Part shown: positions 14,877 to 44,252 of the stretch, one piece after another | How the letters are laid out: each line of letters opens with the position of its first letter | Numbering within the stretch: the first letter of the stretch is position 1 | Assembly: GCF_030409715.1 (NCBI RefSeq) | Contig: NZ_JAUFQI010000001.1 | Location: 851,001 to 915,000, forward strand | Source: Reinekea marina | Lineage (GTDB): Bacteria; Pseudomonadota; Gammaproteobacteria; Pseudomonadales; Natronospirillaceae | Direction of reading: 5' to 3' | Length of the DNA: 64,000 bases | Program-made: the position numbers and the translations under genes | Notes under the pieces: model-generated | What the model saw: the letters and a program-made list of their open reading frames with translations, nothing else | Database searches by the model: none | What the model was told of the DNA's origin: nothing

Positions 14877-16493
14877 TTAATTTGATTCTTTGTTTGCGTA
14901 CATGTCCTGATCGGCTCGATGGATCACATCAGCTAATCCGTTGTCGGTTTGTTCTAACCAGCCAATACCCATGCTAACACTTAATATAATGGGCTCGACC
15001 TCATTGGTTTGAATGGGGTGGTTTCTGAGCTGCTCTAGCAAGCGGTTCCGAATGGCGTCGGCCACGTCTTCGTTTGCATCTGGCAGTAATAATACAAATT
15101 CATCGCCCCCCAGCCTAGCGGCTAAATCACCTGCGCGAATGCAATCTAATAAAATAGCTGAAAGCGTTCTTAAGCATTGATCGCCAAAGTGGTGGCCATG
15201 CAGGTCATTGATCGGTTTAAACTGATCAACATCAATCATAATTACACCGAGTGATCTTTTGTGTCTTAATGCTTGCTCAACTGATTTTGACCCAACGTCT
15301 TCAAACCAGCGTCTGTTGGCTAAATTAGTCAGTGGGTCTGTTCGGGCTTGCTCAGTCAATAGTATTTCAAGTTCTTTGCGTTTGTTCAGCTCTGCAATAC
15401 GTTGCTGATTTAAATGATAAATTCGAGTGGCGATTACCGTAGAAACAACACTAATGGCTGCCAAGGCAAGCAGTGTGTAGCCCACCCATTTAGGCGCTTG
15501 TTCGGCGGGCTGAAACAGAAAGGGTTTTAAATCTTTGGTCTCATTTACTAGACCTGTTGCAGTGAATAGGGTTGCAATATTATTTAAGCGGCTTTGGCTG
15601 ATATAGCCAATTTCAATCATCTCATCTTCTAATAGGTTATTAATGGTTTGTGCTTCAAATGTAAGCGCGAGCCGAGATTTATCGGTGCTATAGTTTTCTA
15701 GAATATCACTGATGACTTCTTCAGAGTTTGCTGCCGCGTATTGCCAGCCTTTTAGCAAGGCTTGTTTCATGGCCACGACAGTCTCAGGGTTTTCATCTGC
15801 AAAGGCTCGACTGGTAAATAAAGAGTCGCCGTAGTAATCAATGCCATATTCATTGGGCGAAAATATTTGATAATCGAGACCCACTTGAACAGCTAAAAAA
15901 GGCTCGGTCGAGAGATATGAGGTAGAGGCATGAATTTCGGGTGTGCTCCCAGGAATTAAACTGCGAATATTGCCTGTGTGGGGGACTAAATTAATTTTGT
16001 TTATGTCGACGCCCTGCGCTAATAAAAAAGCCATCAACTCGTCGGCGTGAACTTCCCCCATTAAGGTTTTGCCTTCTAGGTCTTTGATGGTATTAATGCC
16101 AGCTTTGTTGCGGGCCAGAATAGCAAAAGGAGTGTGCTGGAAAATAGCGGCCACCATGACAACAGGTTTACCCTCTAAATAGGCAACCAACAGTGAGGAG
16201 TTACCCACACCAAACTCGGCTTGGCCAGCTAAAACCTCGTCTACTGGGTCTAAACTAGGGCCGCCTTCGATTAGGGTAACGTTTAACCCGGCATCTTCAA
16301 AATACCCTTGAGATATAGCGGCATAAAAGCCCGCAAACTGATATTGGTGCAGCCATTTTAATTGCACTCGAACATTGGTCAGTGGATCAGCACTTACAAC
16401 GCCCATTAAAAACAACATACAAAACGATAGTCGTGTTCTTTGCCTCGTAAATAAGCACTGTAAAAATGGGGCGATTAAAAACATTAGCGCCAT
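14877..16493 (-). CDS. Periplasmic NMT1/THI5-like sensor fused to GGDEF diguanylate cyclase
   Basis: About 538 residues. After a signal or anchor region (about 1-35) comes an NMT1/THI5-like solute-binding domain: VQLKWLHQYQFAGFYAAISQ, YFEDAGLNVTLIEGG, LAGQAEFGVGNSSLL. A membrane helix (WVGYTLLALAAISVVSTV, about 345-370) leads to a GGDEF domain with RTDPLTNLANRRWFED, IMIDVDQFKPINDLHGHHFG and an intact LAARLGGDEFVLLL active site. RAGD just before it is an RxxD product-inhibition site. It should make c-di-GMP when the periplasmic domain binds a small ligand, perhaps pyrimidine- or thiamine-related. The longest frame begins at TTG 16508; ATG 16493 with GGAT upstream is preferred, though the start is uncertain. 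Confidence 0.88.
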   Translation of the reverse strand: MALMFLIAPFLQCLFTRQRTRLSFCMLFLMGVVSADPLTNVRVQLKWLHQYQFAGFYAAISQGYFEDAGLNVTLIEGGPSLDPVDEVLAGQAEFGVGNSSLLVAYLEGKPVVMVAAIFQHTPFAILARNKAGINTIKDLEGKTLMGEVHADELMAFLLAQGVDINKINLVPHTGNIRSLIPGSTPEIHASTSYLSTEPFLAVQVGLDYQIFSPNEYGIDYYGDSLFTSRAFADENPETVVAMKQALLKGWQYAAANSEEVISDILENYSTDKSRLALTFEAQTINNLLEDEMIEIGYISQSRLNNIATLFTATGLVNETKDLKPFLFQPAEQAPKWVGYTLLALAAISVVSTVIATRIYHLNQQRIAELNKRKELEILLTEQARTDPLTNLANRRWFEDVGSKSVEQALRHKRSLGVIMIDVDQFKPINDLHGHHFGDQCLRTLSAILLDCIRAGDLAARLGGDEFVLLLPDANEDVADAIRNRLLEQLRNHPIQTNEVEPIILSVSMGIGWLEQTDNGLADVIHRADQDMYANKESN

Positions 16494-16665
16494 AAAATAG
16501 CGATCCAATAAGGTTAAATCGCAGTATAGCGCAAAATTGGTAAGTTATGATGGGCACAGGGTAGCCAAGGTCTTCATTTTAACAGTGGTCCAATATACAT
16601 GTACCTAAAATGGTATACAAAATGGTCTAAGCTCTTAAGTATGGGCAGACTAGGGACCGCGCAGC

Positions 16666-19299
16666 ATGGACTTCTTAAGTACAAATTTTATGCCTCATGG
16701 GCAATGTTATTTTTGGCAACCAACCTTGTTGTTGTCTCACGTAATGGCCGATTTAGTCATCTCAGCTTCATACTTCTCGATTCCGATCGCTATTTGGATC
16801 TTCATTAAAAAGAGACCCGATATTGAGTTTCGGCGAGTGCTGTCTTTGTTTGCAGCTTTTATTTTGTTGTGTGGCATTACGCACCTTTATAACGTTTATG
16901 TTGTATGGGTAGGGAGCTATGGTGTTCAAGCCATTTTAAAATCGATGACGGCATTGGTCTCTTTCACGACGGCAATATATATATTTAAACTATTGCCAAA
17001 TGCCATAGCGTTACCTACGCGAGATGAGTGGGAAGCCATGAAGGTATCGGCAATAGAAAAGCGTTATAAAGACGAATCCGAATCGTTCTTTTCTGTTATT
17101 GCCGATAGCCTGCACGATGGCATCGTCGTCTGTGATCGGAAGCTCAAGGTGGTTATGGCAAACGCTGCGGCGAACCGAATTTTCTTAAATGGCCAGGGCA
17201 GTTTAGTCGGTCACGAAGTAGCTGAGTTAATTCCCGATTCAGTGCATCATCATGATGCGTTTGCTGAGCAGTTCTTTTCAATGCCACATGAATATCAGCA
17301 CCCTATGGCTCATGGCCGAACGATTAAAGCAAAATCTTTTGGTGGTGATGAAATTGATATAAGAGTAAAGCTCTCACAGTTTGAGTATTTTGATGAATCA
17401 ATGGTGGCCGTTTCTGTAGAGCAAAATGAACAGAATGAGTCGAGTGAGCAGAATGAAAAATATCAACGCACGATGCGAGCACTGGCCTCAGTGAGTGATG
17501 GTGCTTGGGAATGGAATATAAAGACGGATGAAGTATGGTGGAATGCTAAGCATGCTGAGTTAATTGGGGTTGATGTTAACGCAAAGCCCAGTGTTGAGTT
17601 ATGGCTCAACCATATCCACATGGAGGATCGTAAACGTGTACTCGAATACATAAATGATTCAATTAAGCGCAGTGGGGACTATCAAATTGAATATTTAGGG
17701 TTAACGCCGGAAGGTAATTACAATTGGTTTAGAAGCCGAGGAAAAGTGTACCAATTTAATAATGAGTCGGTGTTTATGTCGGGTATGTTGTCTAACATTC
17801 AGCATACGCATCAGCTTCAGGCCGAGTTAGACAATAAAACCGAGTTTTTAAATAGAGTGATCGATTCTACGGTAGCCAATCTGTTTGTATTTAACGTGAA
17901 TGCCAACAGAATTACCTATGTAAATAAAACGCTGAGTAAAACGCTGGGTTATATTGTTGAAATGCTTGCCCATATTAAAAACCCATTTGAGCTTATTCAT
18001 CCGCAAGATAGACAACCCCTGAAAATCCATGTTCAAAACGTTTTAAGAAAGCCAGAAGTTAGCCACGAAATAGTGGTAAGAGTACGCCATAAAAATGGCC
18101 AATGGGTTTGGTGTTATTGTGAAAATAAAGTCAATGATGTTGATACAACGGGGCGGCCTAATTCATTTTTAGGTGCTTTTATTGATATCAGTGATTTAAA
18201 AGAGAAAGAGCAGGCTATTCAAGCGTGGGCCGCCGATTTTTATTCTATTTTTAACCAAGCGGCCGTTGGCATTGCATTAGTGTCGTTAGAGGGAACTTTT
18301 AAACGGGTTAATGAAAAGTTATGCGAAATGTGGGGTTATCCTGAAGCGGTTTTGTTGAAAAAGTCGTTTTTAGAAATTACTTACCCAGACGATCTAGAAA
18401 CAGACTTAAAGCACGTGAATGCCTTGTTAGCCGGTGAATACGATTCTTACACGTTAGAGAAGCGCTACATCTCGGCAGATGGTGCCATCTTTTGGGCATT
18501 GCTTACAGTGAAACTAGTGAGAGACAGCGAAGGCAAGGCCTCTCATTTTATATCGGTTATAGAAGATATTGATTCAATGAAAGAAACAGAGCGAGCCCTC
18601 AGTGAATCGAATAAAGCTCTAGAGATTTTTGCTTTTACCGCATCACACGATTTACAAGAGCCCTTGAGGAAAATCAAAACCTTTTCAGGTCTGCTCCAGG
18701 AGCGACTAAAGGGTAAGTTAGACGAACCCGAGGCCCAGTTTGAGCTAGGGCGTTTATCTGGCGCGGCAAATAGGATGAGTAAACTTATTACCAGTATTCT
18801 AGAGCTCTCTAGAGCCTCACAAGTTCAACTCGATATTCAGGAAACGAGCCTTAGCGAGTTATTTTTGTTGGTTGAGAATCAACTCGACTTGTCTTCTGAA
18901 GACTTAGACTATAGTTACACAGTAGAAGGCGATATTGGCTTTTATGCCGATGCCATACAAATGGCGCGCGTATTTCAGAATTTAATGGTGAATGCCATTA
19001 AATATAAGTACGAGAGTCGTCCAGTTAACATAAAGGTTCATGGGCGTTTAGAAAACAATAGGGCCATAATTTTGTTCTCGGATGATGGGCCGGGCGTACC
19101 TGAAGATGCCTTGATACATATATTTTCACCCTTTAAACGGCTTGTGGGTAAAGAAAAAGAAGGTTCAGGCATGGGGCTCGCTATTTGTCGCCAAATTGTT
19201 CAAAAGCACCAAGGGTCTATCCATGCATTATCCGGCCAAGGCCCAGGCTTGACGATTGAAATTAGCCTACCGGCCAAACCGCGAGGGTTAAACGGATGA
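16666..19299 (+). CDS. Ethylene-receptor-like multi-PAS sensor histidine kinase
   Basis: 877 residues. Residues 1-120 form three membrane helices closely resembling the ethylene-binding domain of plant ETR1 (FMPHGQCYFWQP, then DLVISASYFSIP, then FILLCGITHLY). Asp29, Tyr36, Ile39, Pro40, Ile66, Cys69 and His73 correspond, at a constant offset of four, to the ETR1 ethylene and copper residues D25, Y32, I35, P36, I62, C65 and H69. Then come about four PAS/PAC domains (130-640), a HisKA domain with the phospho-acceptor in FTASHDLQEPLRKI and an HATPase domain (LMVNAIKYKYES, SDDGPGVPEDAL, GSGMGLAICRQIVQKH). AGGGA lies 9 bases before the ATG. Its stop overlaps the next gene (ATGA). Known family fact: ETR-type domains bind ethylene through Cu(I); binding here is inferred. 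Confidence 0.92.
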   Translation: MDFLSTNFMPHGQCYFWQPTLLLSHVMADLVISASYFSIPIAIWIFIKKRPDIEFRRVLSLFAAFILLCGITHLYNVYVVWVGSYGVQAILKSMTALVSFTTAIYIFKLLPNAIALPTRDEWEAMKVSAIEKRYKDESESFFSVIADSLHDGIVVCDRKLKVVMANAAANRIFLNGQGSLVGHEVAELIPDSVHHHDAFAEQFFSMPHEYQHPMAHGRTIKAKSFGGDEIDIRVKLSQFEYFDESMVAVSVEQNEQNESSEQNEKYQRTMRALASVSDGAWEWNIKTDEVWWNAKHAELIGVDVNAKPSVELWLNHIHMEDRKRVLEYINDSIKRSGDYQIEYLGLTPEGNYNWFRSRGKVYQFNNESVFMSGMLSNIQHTHQLQAELDNKTEFLNRVIDSTVANLFVFNVNANRITYVNKTLSKTLGYIVEMLAHIKNPFELIHPQDRQPLKIHVQNVLRKPEVSHEIVVRVRHKNGQWVWCYCENKVNDVDTTGRPNSFLGAFIDISDLKEKEQAIQAWAADFYSIFNQAAVGIALVSLEGTFKRVNEKLCEMWGYPEAVLLKKSFLEITYPDDLETDLKHVNALLAGEYDSYTLEKRYISADGAIFWALLTVKLVRDSEGKASHFISVIEDIDSMKETERALSESNKALEIFAFTASHDLQEPLRKIKTFSGLLQERLKGKLDEPEAQFELGRLSGAANRMSKLITSILELSRASQVQLDIQETSLSELFLLVENQLDLSSEDLDYSYTVEGDIGFYADAIQMARVFQNLMVNAIKYKYESRPVNIKVHGRLENNRAIILFSDDGPGVPEDALIHIFSPFKRLVGKEKEGSGMGLAICRQIVQKHQGSIHALSGQGPGLTIEISLPAKPRGLNG

Positions 19300-19721
19300 G
19301 TAATGATTTAATAGTGATCGTTGTTGTAGAAGATGATCCGGATGACCAATACCTGATCCAAAAAGCATTATCGAGCGTAGAATTGGACTTGGATATTCGA
19401 TTTATTGGCAATGGGCTCGAAGCCGTGCAATTTTTTGAAAGCTCAATAGCCAAGGCAGACGTAGCCAACAGCCTTGTTCTACTCGATTTAAATTTACCCG
19501 GGGCTTCAGGTTTAGAGGTGCTTAAGTCAATAAAGTCAGATCCAGAATACCAGCCGTTGCCAGTCGTCATTTTAACCACGTCTGAATTCGATGCCGAAAA
19601 ACAATCCGCTAAAGCGCTAGGCGCTAGTGATTACATTGTAAAGCCTGATGACATAAATCGTTTCAAAGAAGTGTTGAGTCACGTTATTAAGGCCTATGTA
19701 AAAAACGGGGAAACTGAATGA
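19296..19721 (+). CDS. Stand-alone response regulator receiver (Rcp1-like)
   Basis: 141 residues, one receiver domain and no output domain. The acidic pocket is VVVEDDPDDQYLIQKAL, the phospho-acceptor Asp is in VLLDLNLPGASGLEV, the Thr is in VVILTTSE and the Lys in DYIVKPDD. The EDDPDD opening and short length are typical of Rcp1-type receivers that serve PAS or phytochrome kinases. It is coupled by ATGA overlaps both to the preceding kinase and to the following REC-GGDEF gene, so it is probably a phosphate intermediary or sink for the ethylene-receptor-like kinase. Confidence 0.92.
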   Translation: MSNDLIVIVVVEDDPDDQYLIQKALSSVELDLDIRFIGNGLEAVQFFESSIAKADVANSLVLLDLNLPGASGLEVLKSIKSDPEYQPLPVVILTTSEFDAEKQSAKALGASDYIVKPDDINRFKEVLSHVIKAYVKNGETE

Positions 19722-20608
19722 TCAATAATATTAAGTTATTGAGTGTCGAAGATGATCCTGATGATGTATACATCTTACAATCTATGTTAGAAAAAGATAA
19801 ACATACGGTATTTAACTTTACTCATGTAAAAACCATGCACGCCGCGAGCAAAGCGCTCATTAGCGAAAAATTTGATGCAGCCTTGTTAGATTTAGGCTTA
19901 CCCGACAGCCATGGACCAGAGTCTATTCGTCTCCTTGCGCAGCAGTTCCCTGAGCTCCCTATTATTGTGGTGACCGACCACGATTCGGTAGAGCTGGAAG
20001 AAAAGCTAATAGACTTAGGCGCCGAAGACTTCATTTCGAAACGAGATTTAACGAATGGTCTGTTATCACGCGTCATTCGACTTTCAATAGAGCGTAAGCA
20101 GCTTCAACTACGAATCGAAAGAAGTGCTCTGATCGATGATTTAACGGGTTTATACAATCGGCAAAGTTTTTATCAGCACTTAAGTGCGGGTATAGCGCAA
20201 GCGAATCGCAGCGAGTTTAAAATTGCAGTCTTTTTTATTGATTTAGATAAATTCAAACACATTAATGATGAATATGGCCACCGTGTAGGTGATCAAGCGC
20301 TTAAGCAATTCAGTGATTTTATCAAATTGAACTCAAGGGAATCGGATATCGCAGCACGTATAGGTGGAGATGAATTTGCCATTGCGATTTTTAATTATGA
20401 ATCAACAGAAGATTTAGAGCGTTACTTTGACCGATTGTTTTCTGAGCAGCCTATTGAAATATCTGCACAAAAGAATGACAAAGACTTTAAATTTGATCTG
20501 AATTTTTCAACCGGTATATGCGAGTGGACACCCGGTGATTCTGTTGATAAGTTAATAGAATCAGCCGATACCGATATGTATCGGACCAAACGACATAAAT
20601 CAGAATAG
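19718..20608 (+). CDS. REC-GGDEF response regulator diguanylate cyclase
   Basis: 296 residues. A receiver domain (about 1-125: LLSVEDDPDDVYILQSML, phospho-Asp in ALLDLGLPDSHG) is joined to a GGDEF domain (about 135-296: LIDDLTGLYNRQSFYQHL, FFIDLDKFKHINDEYGHRVG, AARIGGDEFAIAIF). RESD upstream of GGDEF is a good RxxD inhibitory site. It should make c-di-GMP when phosphorylated, by inference from the kinase encoded in the same coupled set. Start ATG overlaps the previous stop. No obvious terminator follows. Confidence 0.94.
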   Translation: MINNIKLLSVEDDPDDVYILQSMLEKDKHTVFNFTHVKTMHAASKALISEKFDAALLDLGLPDSHGPESIRLLAQQFPELPIIVVTDHDSVELEEKLIDLGAEDFISKRDLTNGLLSRVIRLSIERKQLQLRIERSALIDDLTGLYNRQSFYQHLSAGIAQANRSEFKIAVFFIDLDKFKHINDEYGHRVGDQALKQFSDFIKLNSRESDIAARIGGDEFAIAIFNYESTEDLERYFDRLFSEQPIEISAQKNDKDFKFDLNFSTGICEWTPGDSVDKLIESADTDMYRTKRHKSE

Positions 20609-43098: not shown

Positions 43099-43172
43099 AT
43101 TGCTGCTCTTATCAAAAATATCAGCTAGAATGATGGGACACTTTAATGAATTAAGTGCTTGTGGATACAAAT

Positions 43173-44252
43173 ATGACGAAGCAGTCGCAATGGCTGTTAC
43201 AAAATAAAGTAACTTTTTTACTGTCAAATGGCTATTTTTCGGTAATCAGCAGTATTGTCTTAGTACTGGCGTTTAGCTATGCCAAATGGGACATGGTAGT
43301 TCAAAGCACGGCCTTGAAAGCTTGGTTGGTGCTTGGTTTAATTTTAGCTGCAACTCGGTTAACTCACTTGAGAGTATTTAAAGCTCAAAAAGGTGATGTG
43401 AATTACCTGTTTTGGTTGCGAAGCTATCGGGTGTTAACCTTCTTATCAAGCTTACTTTATGTTGCTTTAGTCTATCTTTTCTTCGGAGCTGTTTCGCCAA
43501 CGTTCCAAGTGGTGATCATGTTTATCGTCGTGGGTGTTACATCTGCTGCGGTTGCTACGCATGGCGTCGATCGAATGACATTCCGTTTGTTTTCTCACAC
43601 CATATTGTTAAGCACAATGGTCATTTTACTTATTCAGCCCGAGCGCGACTTCAACATTATGTCTGGGTTAATGATTCTATTTGTACTGGTCGTCGAGCGT
43701 GCTTCTCAGCAAACGGCCGATACTATGTATAAGAATTTTGAATTAACCTATTCGATGAAGTATCGAGCAACGCACGACCCTTTGGTTGGCCTTTACAATC
43801 GCAGCGAGTTAGAGCATCAGTTTGAGCAGCAATTTATAACAAGCCCTCATGGCATCGCGTTATTATTTATCGATTTAGATAATTTTAAATCTCTGAACGA
43901 TACCCTCGGCCATGCGGCAGGAGACGAAGCGTTAAAAACAGTCGCCAATGCCATTCGTACTCAGATACGCAGCGATGATGTTGCGGCTCGTTTAGGTGGG
44001 GATGAGTATGTCGTGTTGTTAGCGTTAGATGATGTTTCTATAGCCGAGCGTATAGCCAGTGCCATTTGTAAAGATATTGAGCAATCGTGTGATTACGATA
44101 ACCGAATAAATAAAGTCACTAGCAGCATTGGACTGGCCTTTAAAGCCGATTCGGCTATTGGCTTTTCGCGTTTATTGCGCGAAGCGGATATTGCATGCTA
44201 TGAAAGTAAATCACTCGGAAAAAACCGCGTCACTACACGAATTATTGAATAA
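43173..44252 (+). CDS. Membrane diguanylate cyclase (GGDEF)
   Basis: 359 residues from ATG 43173 (GTGGAT upstream); the frame can be extended to GTG 43155. About six hydrophobic helices (residues 15-185, SNGYFSVISSIVLVLAFSY onward) form a MASE-like sensor of unassigned type. The GGDEF domain follows: ATHDPLVGLYNRSELEHQF, LLFIDLDNFKSLNDTLGHAA, and AARLGGDEYVVLL. RSDD forms an RxxD inhibitory site. Active-site GGDEY is a functional variant. It should make c-di-GMP at the inner membrane. Stand-alone gene convergent with astB. Confidence 0.92.
   Translation: MTKQSQWLLQNKVTFLLSNGYFSVISSIVLVLAFSYAKWDMVVQSTALKAWLVLGLILAATRLTHLRVFKAQKGDVNYLFWLRSYRVLTFLSSLLYVALVYLFFGAVSPTFQVVIMFIVVGVTSAAVATHGVDRMTFRLFSHTILLSTMVILLIQPERDFNIMSGLMILFVLVVERASQQTADTMYKNFELTYSMKYRATHDPLVGLYNRSELEHQFEQQFITSPHGIALLFIDLDNFKSLNDTLGHAAGDEALKTVANAIRTQIRSDDVAARLGGDEYVVLLALDDVSIAERIASAICKDIEQSCDYDNRINKVTSSIGLAFKADSAIGFSRLLREADIACYESKSLGKNRVTTRIIE

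What the first reader, a model, noticed from the sequence alone, without database searches (positions are those of the whole stretch)
16666..20608. Ethylene-receptor-type sensor kinase coupled to a diguanylate cyclase
All seven residues known to be important for ethylene binding in ETR1 (D25, Y32, I35, P36, I62, C65, H69) are present at a constant offset of +4 (D29, Y36, I39, P40, I66, C69, H73). The kinase, a bare receiver and a REC-GGDEF protein are joined by ATGA overlaps. That predicts a plant-hormone or gas signal read directly into c-di-GMP. Bacterial ETR-like domains are known (cyanobacteria, Azospirillum); a tightly coupled GGDEF output in a marine-type gammaproteobacterium looks notable.
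Basis: partly seen in the sequence, partly recalled or inferred. Interest (0 to 1): 0.8.

Follow-up and report, generated by a model that had tools for sequence, protein, structure and literature searches.

The report
Ethylene-receptor kinase wired to c-di-GMP
A marine bacterium carries a three-gene switch in which a membrane protein with the plant ethylene receptor's gas-binding part appears to control an enzyme that makes a signal for surface attachment, and the same switch recurs in many related sea bacteria.

Summary
In detail: window 16666-20608 encodes an ETR1_N-PAS-histidine kinase, a bare receiver and a REC-GGDEF protein joined by two ATGA overlaps, in Reinekea forsetii or a genome very near it. 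The seven ethylene residues are nearly invariant in the family, so they only restate membership.

New here: the wiring is a conserved operon. Of 80 related loci, 27 have a REC-GGDEF(-EAL) gene downstream, 3 are direct fusions, 38 show neither, 12 could not be judged. The window's cyclase lies in a 24-member group, all beside ETR1_N kinases; one origin of all 35 such outputs tested is rejected. The genome has a second ETR1_N kinase operon, ending in REC-GGDEF-EAL.

Best reading: a copper-ethylene receptor kinase that drives a diguanylate cyclase and is switched off by ethylene. In Azospirillum ethylene lowers c-di-GMP by an unknown route (PMC11819568). Ethylene binding and phosphotransfer are untested here; two of 39 linked domains have lost the copper cysteine. 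New variant of a known kind.

The parts
16666..19299 (+). Ethylene-receptor-like sensor histidine kinase (877 aa): ETR1_N, PAS domains, HisKA, HATPase_c; H661 phospho-acceptor, N776, D807, G-box at 833
16726..17013 (+). ETR1_N (ethylene-binding-type) domain, residues 21-116, with D29, Y36, I39, P40, I66, C69, H73, K92
16870..16884 (+). Predicted Cu(I) ligands C69 (16870-16872) and H73 (16882-16884)
   Evidence: role by homology to ETR1 C65/H69 (PMC11819568 passages)
19296..19721 (+). Stand-alone receiver, 141 aa, D64 acceptor, K116
   Evidence: ATGA overlap
19718..20608 (+). REC-GGDEF protein (predicted diguanylate cyclase), 296 aa: D58, K108, RESD (RxxD) at 207, GGDEF at 216
   Evidence: ATGA overlap
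14877..16508 (-). Divergent neighbour, 157 bases away: NMT1-type binding domain plus GGDEF (543 aa). A divergent GGDEF gene (538 aa) also stands beside the operon in L165. Not counted as part of the module

Best explanation
The three genes form one signalling unit. The kinase sits in the inner membrane as a dimer and holds a Cu(I) between C69 and H73 that binds ethylene. Without ethylene the kinase is active: H661 is phosphorylated and passes phosphate to D58 of the REC-GGDEF protein, which dimerises and makes c-di-GMP (limited by product binding at its RxxD site), favouring attachment. The bare receiver takes phosphate from the same histidine and acts as a competing sink or a second output. 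Ethylene switches the kinase off, c-di-GMP falls and attachment is reduced. Shown here: the genes, intact motifs, operon structure, its conservation and co-inheritance, and repeated pairing of this sensor with c-di-GMP enzymes. Inferred: ethylene as ligand, kinase-to-receiver specificity, the sign of the response, the role of the bare receiver.
For: ETR1_N E 1.1e-30 with all seven residues plus K92; 42% identity over 116 aa to the A. brasilense plasmid homologue, and AzoEtr1 binds ethylene directly (PMC11819568 abstract and passages). Conserved operon: 27 linked plus 3 fused of 80 loci. Receiver D and K intact in 38 of 38 bare and 41 of 41 output receivers; GG(D/E)EF and RxxD intact in 27 of 27 outputs scanned; both counts include two places fetched twice or one of each pair. 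Output group of 24, all ETR1_N-linked, SH-aLRT 95, with the 6 other own-genome REC-GGDEF proteins outside. More than one output lineage: single origin of 35 outputs rejected, p 2.8e-5. A second ETR1_N operon in the same genome ends in REC-GGDEF-EAL. Sign: ethylene lowers c-di-GMP and biofilm in A. brasilense, and an inverse-agonist model is argued for bacterial receptors (PMC11819568, Discussion part 1).
Against: No binding, copper or phosphotransfer data. Two of 39 linked domains lack the copper Cys (L163 W, L226 A); of 10 fused proteins one lacks it and only 5 keep K92. Of 80 related loci 38 showed no c-di-GMP enzyme within reach, and 20 of 40 in the order sample, 12 of those 20 in one starred clade. 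The cassette also serves kinases without ETR1_N. PAS domains could be the dominant sensors. In Synechocystis ethylene raises biofilm formation (PMC11819568), so the sign is not universal. I found no statement on ethylene in seawater.
Confidence: 0.66

Rival explanations
1. Same wiring, other ligand: the copper site reads another small molecule (carbon monoxide, another olefin) or copper/redox state, not ethylene as such.
For: Nothing found here shows an ethylene source for this marine host. L163 and L226 lose the copper Cys but keep the output genes, so at least those do not use the canonical site.
Against: 37 of 39 linked domains keep C69, and 39 of 39 keep D29, H73 and K92; AzoEtr1 and SynEtr1 bind ethylene (PMC11819568 passages).
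Confidence: 0.17
2. The PAS domains are the working sensors and the ETR1_N domain is mainly a membrane anchor with a residual or modulating role.
For: PAS domains lie between ETR1_N and the kinase; L163 and L226 keep operons without the copper Cys.
Against: The paralogue in L012 has ETR1_N and HisKA with no PAS match and still leads a receiver and REC-GGDEF-EAL operon; the site residues stay conserved across distant members.
Confidence: 0.1
3. The bare receiver is the true partner and the REC-GGDEF protein answers to another kinase; the genes are merely neighbours.
For: Kinase plus bare receiver without a cyclase is also common (A. brasilense AzoRR per PMC11819568; many loci).
Against: The 24-member output group holds only proteins next to ETR1_N kinases among the 52 sampled; both joints lie within 50 bases in 26 of 38 operons with a bare receiver (my count), with ATGA at both joints here; direct ETR1_N-GGDEF fusions exist.
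Confidence: 0.07

Closest known systems
AzoEtr1 / AzoRR-etr1 of Azospirillum brasilense (PMC11819568: abstract, passages, Discussion part 1)
   Same: Ethylene-binding domain, PAS, histidine kinase; bare receiver gene overlapping downstream; ethylene reduces biofilm and c-di-GMP
   Different: The receiver has no other output motif and no cyclase gene is described in the operon; the authors state that the pathway from receptor to responses is unknown
SynEtr1 (Slr1212/UirS) of Synechocystis (PMC6508509, PMC5812497: passages)
   Same: Ethylene-binding domain on a histidine kinase
   Different: Also a photoreceptor; signals to the response regulator Slr1213 and a small RNA
GeiEtr2 of Geitlerinema (PMC6682694: one passage)
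   Same: Putative ethylene receptor grouped with a gene predicted to encode a diguanylate cyclase domain
   Different: One observation in the passage seen; cyanobacterial
H-NOX with its kinase, HnoB and HnoD (PMC8738867, PMC8846402: passages)
   Same: Gas sensing feeds a histidine kinase and response regulators that set c-di-GMP; the gas-bound sensor inhibits the kinase
   Different: Separate heme NO sensor; output a phosphodiesterase and its inhibitor
PcrK/PcrR of Xanthomonas (PMC7700396: figure legend)
   Same: Plant-hormone sensor kinase controls c-di-GMP through a response regulator
   Different: Cytokinin, CHASE domain, phosphodiesterase output
PleD/WspR-type REC-GGDEF cyclases and Cph1-Rcp1-type kinase-receiver pairs (recalled, not from a call)
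   Same: Output and receiver types
   Different: Other sensors

Membership tests
Ethylene-receptor N-terminal domain (Pfam PF25487 ETR1_N) | Curated profile match | tested here: met
   106.2 bits against cut-off 27
Ethylene-receptor N-terminal domain (Pfam PF25487 ETR1_N) | Seven residues needed for ethylene binding in ETR1, plus K91 equivalent | tested here: met
   D29 Y36 I39 P40 I66 C69 H73 K92
Ethylene-receptor N-terminal domain (Pfam PF25487 ETR1_N) | Three transmembrane helices | tested here: inconclusive
   Hydropathy flags two stretches at the threshold used; structure prediction did not run
Ethylene receptor (functional) | Saturable, copper-dependent ethylene binding | not testable with these tools
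   needs a radioligand assay
Two-component histidine kinase | HisKA with H box, N and G boxes | tested here: met
   HisKA and HATPase_c; H661, N776, D807, G833
REC-GGDEF diguanylate cyclase | Receiver with D and K, GGDEF active site, RxxD inhibitory site | tested here: met
REC-GGDEF diguanylate cyclase | Phosphorylation-stimulated c-di-GMP synthesis | not testable with these tools
   needs an enzyme assay
ETR1_N kinase, receiver, REC-GGDEF operon family (proposed here) | Gene order and output conserved across species and co-inherited | tested here: met
   ETR1_N tree support only 82

The most novel reading that the evidence does not exclude
Ethylene-to-c-di-GMP signalling is a widespread, repeatedly built system in marine Gammaproteobacteria. 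Reinekea forsetii carries two receptors of opposite effect, one driving a cyclase and one a GGDEF-EAL enzyme, forming a push-pull gauge of ethylene that sets attachment, and a link of the same kind lies behind the unexplained c-di-GMP drop in ethylene-treated Azospirillum.
Probability: 0.28. Interest if true: 0.82.

Novelty: new variant of a known kind. Interest (0 to 1): 0.62.

Why it matters
In the papers seen here no bacterial ethylene receptor has been connected gene by gene to a second messenger. The 2022 census of c-di-GMP stimuli, PMC8846402, has 0 occurrences of 'ethylene' in its main text, while the Azospirillum work saw c-di-GMP fall with ethylene and called the pathway unknown. This operon supplies a direct, testable route in genera with named strains (Reinekea, Pseudoalteromonas, Thalassotalea, Alteromonas) and would make ethylene a cue for attachment in the sea, away from land plants.

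Tried and rejected
Chance match: rejected. One-off coupling: rejected. Common descent of the two ETR1_N domains in this genome: undecided; the 117-column tree separates them, but with 19 long or near-identical rows dropped (111 kept) the AU test does not reject them as one clade, and the constrained tree scored higher (p 0.655). Sister outputs for the two operons: not rejected (p 0.112), though the free tree scores 21 log units better. Fused receivers as kin of the bare receiver: mean identity 0.17-0.25 to bare and 0.17-0.21 to output receivers, not decisive. My motif patterns for kinase boxes over 41 linked genes were too narrow to be a fair test (H box 35, G boxes 15, N box 19 of 41), so only the window's own boxes are claimed. 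One receiver-column count hit a wrong place and was redone. No solved structure matches the domain profile (0 hits up to E 1). The promoter scan gave 4 sites against a shuffled mean of 11.3 and is not used. Literature: no paper describing an ethylene-binding-domain/GGDEF operon was seen in searches; some searches listed 20 of 26, 24 and 66 papers; the library lacks most subscription papers, and Lacey and Binder 2016 was not held. A search for ethylene in seawater listed two papers; passages of one gave no such statement.
Full report
WHAT IS THERE. The window belongs to Reinekea forsetii or a genome very near it: the closest named locus is R. forsetii G2M07, 98% identical in the domain, and genome G038, called 'same species' by the tool, carries the same operon on a contig of that record's length, 264093. 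The three genes are as described, with ATGA overlaps at both joints. Pfam gives ETR1_N, PAS, HisKA and HATPase_c in the first; a receiver in the second; receiver plus GGDEF in the third. Key residues are intact: H661, N776, D807 and G833 in the kinase; D64 and K116 in the bare receiver; D58, K108, RxxD at 207 and GGDEF at 216 in the third.

THE SEVEN RESIDUES. They are present, with K92 as likely K91 equivalent. But in the 120 listed of 306 homologues six of the seven are invariant and D29 is kept in 113. They restate family membership. The A. brasilense homologue fetched is 42% identical over 116 residues; AzoEtr1 binds ethylene in yeast and in Sp7 cells (PMC11819568 passages).

HOW COMMON. 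ETR1_N over the cut-off occurs in 9 of 22 family genomes, 36 of 293 order genomes and 12 of 369 class genomes, and in 0 of 14 control genomes: a patchy trait.

THE WIRING IS CONSERVED. In the order sample I read all 40 places over the cut-off (4 weaker ones were left out): 6 REC-GGDEF, 7 REC-GGDEF-EAL, 4 fused, 20 none, 3 undetermined. Twelve of those 20 form one starred clade. In the class sample I read the 13 places over the cut-off outside the own genome (4 weaker left out; L173 is also in the order sample): 1 linked, 2 fused, 9 none, 1 undetermined. Two further family places, L156 and L162, were fused and none. 'None' can be an undercount: G277 has a REC-GGDEF gene divergent from its ETR1_N gene. 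Named genera with the linked form include Pseudoalteromonas, Thalassotalea, Psychrosphaera, Alteromonas, Catenovulum, Planctobacterium, Teredinibacter and Oleiphilus. Of 41 linked ETR1_N genes (one, L023, split into two frames) 38 have a bare receiver gene; in the other three (L031, L054, L174) receiver domains are fused to the kinase, so each of the 41 has a receiver besides the one on the output. Two pairs among the 41 are one place fetched twice (L015/L165, L060/L159), leaving 39.

CO-INHERITANCE AND REPEATED PAIRING. In a quick tree of 130 ETR1_N domains (L015 and L060 left out as repeats, L036 without frame, the weak L178 left out) the window lies in a 26-row group, 24 linked and 2 undetermined, support 82, not starred. 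In a quick tree of 52 REC-GGDEF regions (35 of the 41 linked outputs, 1 divergent beside ETR1_N, 16 others), 24 outputs including the window's form a group of ETR1_N-linked proteins only, SH-aLRT 95. The six other REC-GGDEF proteins of the same genome fall outside. With 49 rows (L152, L154 and L242 left out) a single origin for all 35 linked outputs is rejected, p 2.8e-5; leaving out L031, L054 and L174, a choice made after seeing the tree, it is not, p 0.218. So the output was recruited or exchanged more than once, and other lineages fuse ETR1_N directly to GGDEF or GGDEF-EAL. These are short alignments and quick trees.

CONTROLS. The genome has 51 GGDEF hits (two pairs look like overlapping contig ends) and 48 HATPase hits, which include non-kinases. 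All 51 GGDEF places were read in stretches (and the window); the 55 rows hold repeats. Four REC-GGDEF genes have a kinase and receiver just upstream: the window, the paralogue L012, L130, and L133 with a hybrid kinase. Looser kinase neighbours stand at L112, L115, L148 and L154. L130 has a different N-terminal region with PAS and HisKA, then a receiver and REC-GGDEF: the cassette is general and ETR1_N is one of its sensors. Searching from the cyclase side: in the order, 4 of 56 genomes matched at 1e-40 and 3 of the 4 are ETR1_N operons. In the class, 11 of 274 matched, the own genome plus 10; of the 10, one stands divergently beside an ETR1_N gene, five follow a kinase and receiver whose N-termini were not read, and four showed no kinase in the piece. 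At most 42 and 8 candidates per genome were scored.

SECOND RECEPTOR. On contig 1 near 2914200 a 383-aa ETR1_N kinase without a PAS match is followed by a 147-aa receiver and a 572-aa REC-GGDEF-EAL protein; G038 has the same operon. Its I62 equivalent is V. One genome thus holds two such receptors, one on a predicted cyclase and one on a GGDEF-EAL protein whose direction is unknown. In the same family G008, G015, G017 and G018 carry ETR1_N kinase, receiver and REC-GGDEF-EAL; G018 matches the contig length of Saccharospirillum salsuginis. Same-genus genome G001 has a 326-aa ETR1_N-GGDEF fusion.

RESULTS AGAINST. Among 39 linked domains C69 is lost in two (L163 W, L226 A), which keep their output genes; among 10 fused proteins C69 is kept in 9 and K92 in 5. 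Many ETR1_N kinases have no c-di-GMP gene within reach. Nothing here tests binding or phosphotransfer, no structure was computed, and hydropathy showed only two clear helices.

MECHANISM. The kinase is proposed to be on without ethylene and off with it: the inverse-agonist model argued for plants, Synechocystis and Azospirillum (PMC11819568, Discussion part 1). The same text reports that ethylene lowers cyclic di-GMP in A. brasilense and that the pathway from AzoEtr1 is unknown. A kinase driving a REC-GGDEF cyclase predicts that sign. Transfer from one receiver to another is not expected without an HPt step (general knowledge), so the bare receiver most likely competes as a sink or has its own target.

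PRIOR ART. A diguanylate-cyclase-domain gene grouped with GeiEtr2 is noted in PMC6682694 (passage); [quoted passage not shown] The c-di-GMP census PMC8846402 has no occurrence of 'ethylene'. Searches showed no description of this operon family, within a library that lacks most subscription papers.

Noticed in passing
window 14877-16508 (-): Divergent gene with an NMT1-type binding domain fused to GGDEF, 157 bases from the kinase start; a divergent GGDEF gene also stands beside the operon in L165.
   Followed up: partly
L163 (G037) and L226 (G624): Operons of the same type whose ETR1_N domain has W or A in place of the copper cysteine: natural variants predicted not to bind ethylene.
   Followed up: partly
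L156 (G001 contig 5), 3147-4127 (-): A same-genus genome has a 326-aa direct fusion of ETR1_N to GGDEF, a one-protein version of the pathway.
   Followed up: partly
G000 contig 1, near 6944/3466906 and 36219/3496191: GGDEF hits with equal scores repeat at both contig ends about 3.46 Mb apart, as if the contig ends overlap; GGDEF counts are slightly inflated.
   Followed up: no
L130 and L133: Two other kinase and REC-GGDEF cassettes in the genome without ETR1_N.
   Followed up: partly
L230 (A. brasilense MTCC4038 plasmid p1), 4977-6553: The AzoEtr1-type reading frame is split in this record; not mended.
   Followed up: no
L231 (Blastomonas sp. RAC04 plasmid, algal phycosphere): An ETR1_N kinase on a plasmid typed as mobilizable, near an integrase gene and convergent with two receiver genes.
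   Followed up: no
window 43155-44252 (+): A further GGDEF gene (365 aa) after a 1100-aa reading frame.
   Followed up: no
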